From Baekduia soli (GTDB lineage Bacteria > Actinomycetota > Thermoleophilia > Solirubrobacterales > Solirubrobacteraceae): a stretch of 64,000 nt of DNA. The stretch is taken from NCBI RefSeq assembly GCF_007970665.1, contig NZ_CP042430.1, positions 3,472,001 through 3,536,000 on the forward strand, in the 5' to 3' direction. The notes under the pieces are model-generated. The model searched no databases and was not told where the DNA came from. It saw nothing but the letters and a program-made list of their open reading frames with translations. Shown one piece after another: positions 40,615 to 43,972 of this stretch (position 1 is its first letter; every line of letters begins with the position of its first letter). The position numbers were made by a program, and so were the translations under genes.

Positions 40615-42264
40615 GTGTCGAGAACCGCCGCCCCCGACCCGGACGCCGCCCGCCGTCCCGCCGAACGCGACCTGCTGCGCCGGCTGGCCACGGGCACGGC
40701 CGGCGTGGTCGGCGATGCGTTCTGCCGCGCGCTGGTCCGGCACCTGGCCGGGGCCTTCGGCGCCGAGCTGGCCTTCGTCGCCGAGCACCTCCCCGAGCCC
40801 GCCGGGCGCGTCCGCGTGCTCGCCTCGTGGCAGACGGGCGTGCCGCTGCCCGAGGGCTATGAGTTCGACCTCAGCGACGCGATGCCGTGCTCCGTCGTCG
40901 CCCACGACGGACTGCTCGTGCTGCCCGAGGGCACGTGCGCGCGCTACCCGGGCGACCACGTCGTCTCGACCTACGGGCTGGACGCCTACCTCGGCGTCGC
41001 GCTCGACGGCGCCGACGGCGCCCGCGTCGGCTACCTGGCGGTCATGGCCTCCCGGCCGCTGGAGCCCGACGACGACGAGATCGCGGTCCTGCGGATCTTC
41101 GCGGCGCGGGCCGCCGCCGAGGTCGAGCGCCGCCGCCACCAGGGCGCGCTGCGCGCGCGGGACGCCGAGGTCGCCTCGGCGCGCGCCCGCGTCCTGGACG
41201 CCGCCGACGGGGAGCGCCAGCGCATCGGGCGCGACCTGCACGACGGCGCCCAGCAGCGCATCGTCGCCCTGACGCACCTCATCGGCCTCGCCCGGCGCAA
41301 GCTCGGCGACGACGTGCCCGCCGACGCGGCCGCGCTGCTGGACCGCGCCCACGAGGAGGCGCGCCTGGCCACCGACGAGCTGCGCGAGCTGGCCCGCGGC
41401 CTGCACCCGGCCGGTCTGACCGAGAAGGGGCTCGTGGCCGCGCTGGAGGCGCTGGCCGCCCGCGCGCCGCTGCCGCTGCGGCTCGGCCGCATGCCCGAGC
41501 GCCGCCTGCCCGCGCCCCTGGAGCTCACGGCGTTCTACCTGGCCTCGGAGGGCCTGACCAACGCGGTGAAGTACGCGGGCGCCACCGAGGTGCGCATCGA
41601 CGTCCTCCAGCGCCCCGACGCCGCGGTGATCGAGTTCGCCGACGACGGCGCCGGAGGCGCCGACCCGGGCGCGGGCAGCGGCCTGAGCGGCCTGCGCGAC
41701 CGCGTCGCCGCGCTCGGGGGCCGCCTCGAGGTCCACAGCCCGCCGGGCGACGGCACCCGGCTGGTGGCGACGATCCCGCTCGCGCCGTTCCGCTCCGCGC
41801 ACGAGCCGTTCCTGGAGTTCGGCCACGCTCAGGACGGCGGGCGCGGAGAGCGCAACATCCAGGCCGTGATCGCCGGGCGCAAGAGCCTGTCGGTCACCCT
41901 GGCCCGCGAGTGGGAGCTCGAGGGCGGGATCCCGCGCATCGGCCAGCGCCTGCCCGTCATGGACCACGAGGGGCGCCGCCGCGCGACCGTCGAGGTCCAG
42001 CGCGTCGCGTCGCTGCCGTTCGCCGACATCGACGAGACCGTGATCGAGCCCGCCACGCTGGACGCGACGTCGCTGTCGGAGTGGGCCGCCCGCCAGCAGC
42101 GCTTCTACGACGAGTGCCGCGACGAGCTGGCGCTGCTGTTCGGCGAGCCCGGCTGGCGGTTCTGCGCCGAGGAGCCGATGGTCCTCACCTGGTACCGGCC
42201 CGTCGCCGGCGACGACGACGGCGGGCCCGAGGCTCAGACCGGGCCTTCCTCGCTCTCGGCGTAG
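40615..42264 (+). CDS. GAF-histidine kinase (HisKA_3) fused to a C-terminal ASCH domain
   Basis: 549 residues, GTG start, soluble. Residues ~30-175 are a GAF-like sensor. The HisKA_3 dimerisation helix reads QRIGRDLHDGAQQRIVALTH with the phospho-acceptor His209, as in NarL/DesK-type kinases. The HATPase has Asn316 in GLTNAVKYAG and the G box ADDGAGGADPGAGSGLSGLR. The catalytic domain ends near 390. Residues ~400-535 are an ASCH (PUA-like) domain: AVIAGRKSLSVTLAREWELE with Lys423, PRIGQRLPVMDHEGRRRATV, then LSEWAARQQRFYDECRDELA and EEPMVLTWYRPV. No response regulator is adjacent. The ASCH part is in the same frame without any break, so the fusion is real in this sequence. Confidence 0.85.
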   Translation: MSRTAAPDPDAARRPAERDLLRRLATGTAGVVGDAFCRALVRHLAGAFGAELAFVAEHLPEPAGRVRVLASWQTGVPLPEGYEFDLSDAMPCSVVAHDGLLVLPEGTCARYPGDHVVSTYGLDAYLGVALDGADGARVGYLAVMASRPLEPDDDEIAVLRIFAARAAAEVERRRHQGALRARDAEVASARARVLDAADGERQRIGRDLHDGAQQRIVALTHLIGLARRKLGDDVPADAAALLDRAHEEARLATDELRELARGLHPAGLTEKGLVAALEALAARAPLPLRLGRMPERRLPAPLELTAFYLASEGLTNAVKYAGATEVRIDVLQRPDAAVIEFADDGAGGADPGAGSGLSGLRDRVAALGGRLEVHSPPGDGTRLVATIPLAPFRSAHEPFLEFGHAQDGGRGERNIQAVIAGRKSLSVTLAREWELEGGIPRIGQRLPVMDHEGRRRATVEVQRVASLPFADIDETVIEPATLDATSLSEWAARQQRFYDECRDELALLFGEPGWRFCAEEPMVLTWYRPVAGDDDGGPEAQTGPSSLSA

Positions 42265-42675: not shown

Positions 42676-42930
42676 TCAGCTCGCCGCGCGGCGGCGCGGG
42701 CCACCGCGCTTGACGGGCGCCCACTTGGTGCCCTTGGCCAGCGTCTCGACGGCCTCGAGCTTGACGCTGCGGGCGGCGCCGAGGTCCTTGCGCAGACGCG
42801 TGAGCGCGAGGCGCACGAGGTCGCTCTGGGTCAGCTTGGTCTTGCCCGACGCCGTCTCCAGCCAGGAGATCTCATCGGCACCGATGAGGTATGAGCGCTG
42901 CTTGAGCCCACTGGGTCGATCTGTTGCCAC
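42676..42930 (-). CDS. Small basic protein, possible ribbon-helix-helix regulator
   Basis: 84 residues. RSYLIGADEISWLETASGKT followed by KLTQSDLVRLALTRLRKDLG has the strand-helix-turn-helix spacing of CopG/Arc-type repressors. The C-terminus is basic (KWAPVKRGGPRRRAAS). A Shine-Dalgarno (AAGGAGG at 42939-42945) precedes the ATG. It is divergent from the DsbA-like gene, whose promoter holds paired palindromes, making it a candidate to bind them. The family call is tentative. Confidence 0.6.
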   Translation of the reverse strand: MATDRPSGLKQRSYLIGADEISWLETASGKTKLTQSDLVRLALTRLRKDLGAARSVKLEAVETLAKGTKWAPVKRGGPRRRAAS

Positions 42931-43012
42931 GGGGTCCTCCTTCGTGAATGGATGGGATTGCTCCCGGCCCGGGTGTTCGGCACGCGAGGAGCAAATCCTT
43001 GCCTATGACTCG

Positions 43013-43024
43013 TTGCTAGTGCAA
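43013..43024. promoter_or_regulatory. Palindromic site TTGCTAGTGCAA
   Basis: TTGC-N4-GCAA, upstream copy of a pair. It lies just ahead of the AT-rich candidate -10 (TATATC, 43029-43034). Confidence 0.5.
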
Positions 43025-43059
43025 GGCATATATCACAAGTCCGTGCCGGTACCCCTCCG

Positions 43060-43071
43060 TTGCACGTGCAA
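43060..43071. promoter_or_regulatory. Palindromic site TTGCACGTGCAA
   Basis: Perfect 12-bp palindrome, 47 bp downstream of its partner and 10 nt before the DsbA-like ATG, i.e. in the presumed leader. Confidence 0.55.
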
Positions 43072-43081
43072 TCATCGTCGT

Positions 43082-43972
43082 ATGCCCGCTCCGATCCGGA
43101 CCATCCACTTCAGCGACCCGGGATGCCCCTGGGCCTACTCGGCCTGGCCGGCCCACAGCGTCCTGCGCTGGCGCTTCGGCGCGCAGCTCGACTGGCGCCT
43201 GGTGCTCATTGGCCTGGCCGAGACCCCCGACCGCTATGTCAACTCGGGCTACACGCCGGCGCGCAGCGCGCAGGGCTACCGCCGCTTCGCCCGGTTCGGC
43301 ATGCCGTTCGGCGGCCAGCCGCGGGCCCGCATCACCGCGACCTCGCCGGCCTGCCGCACCATCGTCGCGGCGCGCCTGGCCCACCCCGGCGACGACACCG
43401 ACCTGAAGGTCTTCCGCGCGCTCGCGCTCGCCATGTTCACCAGCACCGCGCTGCTCGACACCGAGGAGGGGCTGCGCGACGCGCTGGCCCGCCTGGGCGA
43501 CGCCATCGACGCCGCCGCGCTCGTCGGGGCGATCGAGGACCCGGCCGTGCGCGAGGCCTACGAGGAGGACCGCGCGCTGGCACGCACCGCCGCGGGCCGG
43601 CCGATCGACGTGCAGGGCCGCGCCGCGGACACCGACGGCGCCGTGCGCTACACCGCGCCGTCGGTCCGCTTCACCGACGAGGCCGACGCCACGCTGGAGG
43701 TCGGCGGCTTCCAGCCGTGGGAGGCCTACGACACCGCGCTGGCCAACCTCGCGCCGGGCCTGCAGCGCCGCCCGCCCGCCGAGGATCCCGTCGACGTCCT
43801 GCGCGAGCTGCCCTACGCGCCGTGCACGCGCGAGGTCGCGGCCTGCATGGCGGGCAACCTCGACGCGCCCGACGACGCGGCGGCCGAGGCCGCGCTCATC
43901 GACGCCGCCGCCCAGGGCGTGGTCGTGCGCCAGGCCGTCGGCAACGGCGCGCTCTGGCACCTGGCCGCCTGA
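43082..43972 (+). CDS. DsbA/FrnE-like thioredoxin-fold oxidoreductase
   Basis: 296 residues. The start IRTIHFSDPGCPWAYSAWPA places a Cys at the DsbA active-site position, but as PGCPW rather than CxxC, as in FrnE and 2-hydroxychromene isomerase-like members. The helical insert (LKVFRALALAMFTSTALLDT) is typical. The C-terminus has YAPCTREVAACMAG and a winged-helix-like end. It may be a glutathione- or mycothiol-linked isomerase or dehalogenase-like enzyme. The promoter with two palindromes implies specific control. Confidence 0.75.
   Translation: MPAPIRTIHFSDPGCPWAYSAWPAHSVLRWRFGAQLDWRLVLIGLAETPDRYVNSGYTPARSAQGYRRFARFGMPFGGQPRARITATSPACRTIVAARLAHPGDDTDLKVFRALALAMFTSTALLDTEEGLRDALARLGDAIDAAALVGAIEDPAVREAYEEDRALARTAAGRPIDVQGRAADTDGAVRYTAPSVRFTDEADATLEVGGFQPWEAYDTALANLAPGLQRRPPAEDPVDVLRELPYAPCTREVAACMAGNLDAPDDAAAEAALIDAAAQGVVVRQAVGNGALWHLAA

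What the first reader, a model, noticed from the sequence alone, without database searches (positions are those of the whole stretch)
43013..43071. Paired TTGC-N4-GCAA palindromes flanking the promoter of a DsbA/FrnE-like gene
Two 12-bp palindromes (TTGCTAGTGCAA and the perfect TTGCACGTGCAA) lie 47 bp apart, nearly five helical turns across long B-DNA, around an AT-rich -10. The divergent 84-residue ribbon-helix-helix-like protein is a candidate repressor that could bind both sites cooperatively.
Basis: partly seen in the sequence, partly recalled or inferred. Interest (0 to 1): 0.55.

Follow-up and report, generated by a model that had tools for sequence, protein, structure and literature searches.

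The report
MarR operator on a leaderless promoter
One of the two DNA palindromes is a conserved switch site in front of a redox-protein gene, most likely bound by a MarR-type repressor encoded elsewhere in this soil actinobacterium and shared with quinone-detoxification genes, and not by the small neighbouring protein.

Summary
Both palindromes exist, but they are not an equal pair. Site 2 (43060-43071) is conserved. TTGC-N4-GCAA lies within 60 bp of the start in 13 of 30 dsbA-like orthologues exactly (15 with one mismatch; shuffles average 0.03 and 0.61). The start codon is 10-12 nt past the palindrome in 12 of 13 cases, with no Shine-Dalgarno and a CAT only on the gene side. This reads as an operator overlapping the -10 of a leaderless promoter. 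Site 1 is a palindrome only in this genome, 4.5 helical turns away. The 84-aa protein occurs in 5 of 61 genomes, all of this genus, so it cannot explain a family-wide motif. A MarR protein can: 136 of 146 family genomes have it, and 26 of 30 copies carry the motif upstream. Other motif-bearing genes are quinone-type: dioxygenases, MhqD-like esterase, WrbA, azoreductase, DoxX, efflux. The MarR is nearest to Streptomyces AbsC and SCO3205; the regulon resembles MhqR's. The DsbA-like protein folds like YjbH (Z 27). Binding, inducer and leaderless start are inferred, not shown.

The parts
43060..43071 (+). Site 2, TTGCACGTGCAA: conserved operator of the dsbA-like gene
   Evidence: Within 60 bp of the start, 13 of 30 orthologues exact and 15 with at most one mismatch; dinucleotide shuffles mean 0.03 and 0.61 (500 shuffles); 11 permuted half-sites give 0 exact. 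TTGCNNNTGCAANCAT: 37 strand matches against 4 of the reversed control in 146 family genomes.
43067..43075 (+). Inferred extended -10 (TGC AATCAT) of a leaderless promoter, overlapping the right half of site 2; start at the A of 43082
   Evidence: Start codon 10-12 nt after the palindrome in 12 of 13 orthologues with an in-frame start; no Shine-Dalgarno in 13 of 13; A 13 of 15 and T 11 of 15 at the third and fourth base after the palindrome, left flank without such a signal. Start of transcription not mapped.
43013..43024 (+). Site 1, TTGCTAGTGCAA: palindrome in this genome only; possible weak second operator
   Evidence: In three genus relatives only the right half CTWGTGCAAG is kept; one mismatch in G003, no match in G001 and G006.
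43082..43972 (+). DsbA-like gene, 296 aa: thioredoxin-fold domain with CPWA (one cysteine) and a C-terminal winged-helix-like domain; fold of YjbH
   Evidence: Pfam DSBA E 7e-7; AlphaFold2 mean pLDDT 95.5; YjbH 6ghb_D Z 27.0, rmsd 2.8, 260 residues, next different protein Z 20.8.
42676..42930 (-). Divergent 84-aa protein, genus-restricted; not the regulator of the conserved site
   Evidence: 5 of 61 genomes, all same genus; no family hit above a cut-off; model pLDDT 59.
42994..43008 (.). Block AATCCTTGCCTATGA next to site 1, nearly unchanged in four genus genomes; probably part of the 84-aa gene's own promoter (inference)
   Evidence: Alignment of four intergenic regions.

Best explanation
Site 2 is the operator of a MarR-family repressor of the AbsC/SCO3205 group, encoded in trans (nearest orthologue in this genome at G000:C1:2136950, a second at 1539404; the window is at 3472001-3536000). 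Shown: the site is conserved across genera before dsbA-like genes, before the MarR gene itself and before genes for ring-cleaving dioxygenases, quinone reductases, a glutathione-transferase-like protein and efflux pumps; its right half lies where the -10 element of a leaderless promoter would be. Inferred: the MarR dimer binds TTG(C/T)-N4-GCAA and blocks RNA polymerase at the -10; a quinone or other phenolic electrophile bound in its Trp/His pocket releases it; the MarR represses its own gene in the same way; the induced DsbA-like (YjbH-fold, one-cysteine) protein then handles thiol damage or thiol adducts.
For: Motif before dsbA-like genes. MarR in 136 of 146 family genomes; motif with at most one mismatch upstream of 26 of 30 MarR loci, 12 exact (shuffle means 1.56 and 0.05). 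Of 80 MarR loci from named genomes 19 exact and 47 with at most one mismatch, best other half-sites 4 and 10. Own genus, 7 genomes: 22 matches of TTGN5GCAANCAT, control 0; in this genome they precede MarR1, MarR2, an MhqO-like dioxygenase, dsbA, an MFS pump and one unknown ORF. Exact geometry with start codon: 9 matches in 399 class genomes, all in this family, control 0. MarR divergent from a dioxygenase gene with the motif between in G081 and G083. Recognition-helix residues that read bases in SCO3205 (Arg72, Ser73, His77 contacting G8) correspond to R65, S66 and R70 here, invariant in 16; the ligand-pocket pair Trp/His is W9 and H112, also invariant.
Against: No binding, induction or start-site data. 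15 of 30 dsbA orthologues lack the site, some of them in genomes with a strong MarR match (G012, G015, G018, G034; values collected). G137 and G144 have the dsbA site but no MarR match at E 1e-15; they are 82% and 58% complete. 94 of 133 motif sites in MarR-positive genomes had no regulon-type gene within 90 nt, so many matches of the short pattern are chance or unrelated. SCO3205's published consensus, TTnAAnnnTCAA, differs at the inner bases. Genome comparisons are not phylogenetically independent.
Confidence: 0.72

Rival explanations
1. The divergent 84-aa protein is the repressor and binds both palindromes cooperatively.
For: It is adjacent and divergent, and stays so in G001, G003 and G006; site 1 keeps a half-site near its promoter.
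Against: No match in 56 of 61 genomes while the motif is conserved in other genera; site 1 not conserved as a palindrome; spacing 4.5 turns; no ribbon-helix-helix signature found.
Confidence: 0.04
2. The conserved element is a promoter of an alternative sigma factor, not an operator.
For: The right half plus CAT sits where a -10 would be, at a near-constant distance from the start codon.
Against: The element is palindromic and the left half TTG is as conserved as the right; at MarR and dioxygenase genes the distance to the start varies widely and sites can be double.
Confidence: 0.1
3. Another regulator with the same half-site binds, and the AbsC/SCO3205-like MarR only shares the motif because it is itself one of the targets.
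For: G137 and G144 carry the dsbA site without a detected MarR; several MarR paralogues exist per genome.
Against: The MarR upstream regions carry the motif more often (26 of 30) than those of the other gene examined in bulk, dsbA (15 or 16 of 30); sites in four genomes without the MarR precede no regulon-type gene (0 of 13).
Confidence: 0.12
4. The DsbA-like protein regulates itself through its C-terminal winged-helix-like domain.
For: The model has a helix-helix-helix-strand-strand C-terminal domain.
Against: The closest fold over the full length is YjbH, solved in complex with Spx protein; 15 of 30 orthologues lack the motif; other, unrelated genes carry it.
Confidence: 0.02

Closest known systems
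SCO3205 and AbsC, MarR-family regulators of Streptomyces coelicolor (PDB 3zpl, 3zmd)
   Same: Best matches of the MarR by sequence (profile E 2.7e-30 and 1.7e-30); 12-bp pseudopalindrome of the same layout; operators between the gene and a divergent dioxygenase-like gene, autoregulation proposed (passages of PMC3737563); Trp/His ligand pocket and Arg/Ser base contacts kept.
   Different: Inner operator bases are C/G here, A/T in the SCO3205 consensus; recognition-helix His77 is Arg here; the authors could ascribe no function to SCO3205, whereas the regulon here points to quinones.
MhqR of Bacillus subtilis and Staphylococcus aureus
   Same: Regulon content: ring-cleaving dioxygenases, MhqD-type esterase, azo/quinone reductase (passages of PMC6798810); in S. 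aureus the operator overlaps the transcription start (-6 to +12).
   Different: Weaker sequence match (9qdr/9smz, E 1.6e-10); operator is a 9-9 repeat TATCTCGAA-ATCGAAATA; described from Firmicutes.
YjbH/SpxH, adaptor of Spx degradation (PDB 6ghb, 6gho)
   Same: Full-length fold of the DsbA-like protein including the C-terminal domain (Z 27.0).
   Different: 18-19% identity; CP[W/F][A/G] instead of CXXC in all 30 orthologues aligned.
FrnE of Deinococcus radiodurans (PDB 5xwh)
   Same: Thioredoxin-fold core, Z 18.1.
   Different: Only residues 4-228 of the model align; the C-terminal domain is not covered.

Membership tests
MarR family | Pfam MarR/MarR_2 above the gathering score | tested here: met
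   Own-genome MarR (L111): PF12802 40.2 bits against 27, PF01047 34.8 against 24.6.
AbsC/SCO3205 group | Closest relatives among solved MarR proteins | tested here: met
   3zmd and 3zpl rank first and second, far above the rest; no tree was built.
AbsC/SCO3205 group | Operator consensus TTnAAnnnTCAA | tested here: not met
   Half-site TTGA-N4-TCAA, one form of it: 0 exact, 3 with one mismatch of 80 upstream regions; TTGC 19 and 47.
AbsC/SCO3205 group | Trp/His ligand pair and Arg/Ser base contacts | tested here: met
   W9, H112, R65, S66 invariant in 16 sequences, aligned to the published residues.
MhqR regulator | Operator 9-9 repeat TATCTCGAA-ATCGAAATA | tested here: not met
   The conserved motif here is TTG(C/T)-N4-GCAA.
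MhqR regulator | Regulon of dioxygenase, MhqD-type esterase, azo/quinone reductase | tested here: met
   All present among motif-bearing genes or operons of the family, though in different genomes; the MhqD match is below the curated cut-off (38.8 of 325 bits).
MhqR regulator | Release by quinones | not testable with these tools
   Needs an experiment.
YjbH/SpxH | DsbA-like plus C-terminal domain fold | tested here: met
   Z 27.0 over residues 1-295.
YjbH/SpxH | CXXC motif | tested here: not met
   No second cysteine in 30 of 30.
Ribbon-helix-helix (84-aa protein) | Strand-helix-helix fold or family hit | tested here: inconclusive
   No such family hit; model of low confidence.

The most novel reading that the evidence does not exclude
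The AbsC/SCO3205-type MarR proteins of Solirubrobacteraceae are the actinobacterial counterpart of MhqR by convergence: a quinone- or phenol-sensing repressor that shuts leaderless promoters by sitting on their -10, and whose most widely kept target is a one-cysteine YjbH-like protein that acts as a redox adaptor or thiol-transfer enzyme in quinone stress.
Probability: 0.3. Interest if true: 0.65.

Novelty: new variant of a known kind. Interest (0 to 1): 0.5.

Why it matters
SCO3205-type regulators are described as well represented in actinomycetes and were solved bound to DNA, and yet had no function that the 2013 paper could name. The regulon seen here gives a direct hypothesis (quinone or phenolic electrophile defence) and a concrete DNA site to test. 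It also ties a YjbH-fold protein, known in Firmicutes as the adaptor for Spx, to the same stress in actinobacteria, and gives a simple design in which one palindrome is both operator and part of a leaderless promoter.

Tried and rejected
Rejected: the 84-aa protein as regulator; cooperative pair with fixed spacing; CAT as an outer operator arm (the left flank of dsbA sites shows no matching ATG; the MFS site of this genome is symmetrical, so a small contribution is not excluded); self-regulation by the DsbA-like protein.

Led nowhere: a text search for MarR with the half-sites (none); six motif 12-mers as text gave only three unrelated papers; searches for MarR regulons in Solirubrobacter or Conexibacter and for FrnE with MarR gave nothing on the subject in the titles and abstract starts listed. 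So any remark that this is not in print rests on these four searches of one open library only. The model of the 84-aa protein was too weak to search with. The VIA-align list is a second look at Foldseek's own hits. The regulon census is partly circular: the reference families were taken from earlier motif hits, the yes/no labels were set by hand from the output and typed into, and duplicate sites were dropped by the script. Two places in G169 (C172 and C197) were not fetched.

Full report
What is there. The two palindromes lie at 43013-43024 and 43060-43071, the only two TTGC-N4-GCAA of the window. In the whole 5.2-Mb genome there are 11, as many as the reversed control, so one such site means little; two within 60 bp are expected 0.0013 times. 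They are 47 bp apart start to start, 4.5 helical turns. The ATG of the 296-aa DsbA-like gene is at 43082, 10 nt after site 2.

Conservation before the DsbA-like gene. The gene was found in 49 of 61 related genomes; the 30 best loci were read, turned to the gene's strand. Within 60 bp of the aligned start, 13 of 30 have TTGC-N4-GCAA exactly and 15 with at most one mismatch; 500 dinucleotide shuffles average 0.03 and 0.61, with maxima 1 and 3, and each of the 11 other orders of the half-site gives 0 exact and at most 1. Of the 15, 13 have an in-frame start after the palindrome: at 10 nt in 8, at 11-12 in 4, at 19 in 1; none of the 13 has a Shine-Dalgarno-like stretch. After the palindrome follows N-C-A-T (C 10, A 13, T 11 of 15); before it nothing comparable. 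The right half TGC-AA plus NCAT thus has the place and look of an extended -10 element for a transcript that starts at the start codon. This is inference from position; no start was mapped.

Site 1. In the three genus relatives with the same gene neighbours only the right half CTWGTGCAAG is kept; the full palindrome is in this genome alone. A block beside it, AATCCTTGCCTATRA, is nearly unchanged in four of four and probably belongs to the promoter of the divergent gene.

Not the small protein. The 84-aa protein is in 5 of 61 genomes, all of the same genus, whereas the dsbA site is found in other genera. No family names it and its model is poor (pLDDT 59).

How widely the element occurs. TTGCNNNTGCAANCAT: 37 strand matches in 146 family genomes, reversed control 4. 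With the start codon at 10 nt added: 9 in 399 class genomes, all in this family, control 0; one mismatch allowed and the inner G fixed, 23 against 3 in 146. TTGN5GCAANCAT: 22 against 0 in the 7 genus genomes and, by my addition of the table, 147 against 36 in 78 family genomes at least 90% complete.

What else carries it. In this genome: the MarR gene at C1:2136950; a second MarR at 1539404-1539829 and, directly after it, a dioxygenase gene followed by an MhqD-like esterase; dsbA; an MFS pump at 4184346; and one site before a 108-aa ORF without family hit. In relatives (families): dioxygenases, one with an MhqD-like esterase behind it, WrbA-type quinone oxidoreductase (divergent from MarR), glutathione-transferase-like protein, aldo-keto reductase, azoreductase, DoxX, PIG3-like quinone reductase, YceI, thiol peroxidase, luciferase-like monooxygenase, DHA2 efflux pump. 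By hand-set labels, a regulon-type gene lies within 90 nt of 39 of 133 distinct sites in genomes with the MarR and of 0 of 13 in four genomes without it (Fisher p 0.014); the labels are partly circular, and the 94 without show that many matches of this short pattern are not functional or not recognised.

The regulator. A MarR protein found beside the motif in G148 has orthologues or close relatives in 136 of 146 family genomes. Of the 30 best loci, 26 have the motif with at most one mismatch in the 250 bp upstream, 12 exactly; shuffles of 160 bp average 1.56 and 0.05. Of the 80 best loci from named genomes, mostly Solirubrobacteraceae, 47 and 19, including one Frankiaceae MAG (L216) but not five named Frankia or Parafrankia (L208, L210, L212, L213, L217). 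The consensus there is TTG(C/T)-N-C-G-(C/T)-GCAA. Genomes with a dsbA site have stronger MarR matches than those without (15 against 14, rank test p 0.0019; relatedness not corrected).

Nearest known. By sequence the MarR is closest to AbsC and SCO3205 of Streptomyces coelicolor. From passages of PMC3737563: SCO3205 has two operators between its gene and a divergent dioxygenase-like gene, consensus TTnAAnnnTCAA, base contacts by Arg72, Ser73 and His77 (to a G), and a pocket where AbsC holds salicylate with Trp and His; no function could be ascribed. Here Arg and Ser are invariant, His77 is replaced by an invariant Arg, and Trp and His are invariant in 16 sequences. The regulon resembles that of MhqR (passages of PMC6798810): dioxygenases MhqA/E/O, esterase MhqD, AzoR2; but MhqR is a weaker sequence match and has another operator (passages of PMC12893000). 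So it works like MhqR and is by descent nearer AbsC/SCO3205.

The target. The DsbA-like protein models well (pLDDT 95.5). Its best fold match over the whole length is YjbH (Z 27.0, 260 residues; the next different protein 20.8 over residues 3-228). Cys-Pro is invariant but the second cysteine of CXXC is absent in 30 of 30. An adaptor or thiol-transfer role is a guess.

Mechanism proposed. MarR dimers on site 2 cover the -10 and keep dsbA off; a quinone or phenolic electrophile frees the site; dsbA, MarR itself, dioxygenase and pump are induced together. Steps shown by sequence: the conserved site, its geometry, the shared gene set, the MarR's own site. Steps inferred: binding, block, ligand, leaderless start, role of the product.

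Noticed in passing
40615-42264 (+): A histidine kinase (GAF, HisKA_3, HATPase) whose C-terminus matches the ASCH domain (E 0.0005, at the cut-off): an unusual fusion or two joined frames.
   Followed up: no
L070 (G000:C1:4182500-4186500): The MFS pump gene behind the second leaderless-type site of this genome reads 183 aa and then continues in another frame: frameshift or sequencing error.
   Followed up: no
L111, upstream of 1501: The MarR1 gene of this genome shows no ATG or GTG start near the operator in the scan (first found 88 nt after the palindrome); three genus relatives have GTG 7-13 nt after it. Unusual start codon or changed start.
   Followed up: no
L219, L218, L221, L188, L211: Dioxygenase and MarR promoters can carry two sites 25-26 bp apart, unlike the 47 bp seen here.
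   Followed up: partly
A1, residue C86 of the own MarR: A cysteine in the wing region is invariant in 16 of 16 and also present in AbsC and SCO3205; a thiol switch is a possible alternative to ligand binding.
   Followed up: no
L224 and L231 (G006, G001): A small protein of 92-99 aa behind TTGCGCGCGCAA sites in two genus genomes, without family hit for the one tested.
   Followed up: no
42994-43008: Strongly conserved block AATCCTTGCCTATGA between site 1 and the 84-aa gene, function not explained.
   Followed up: no
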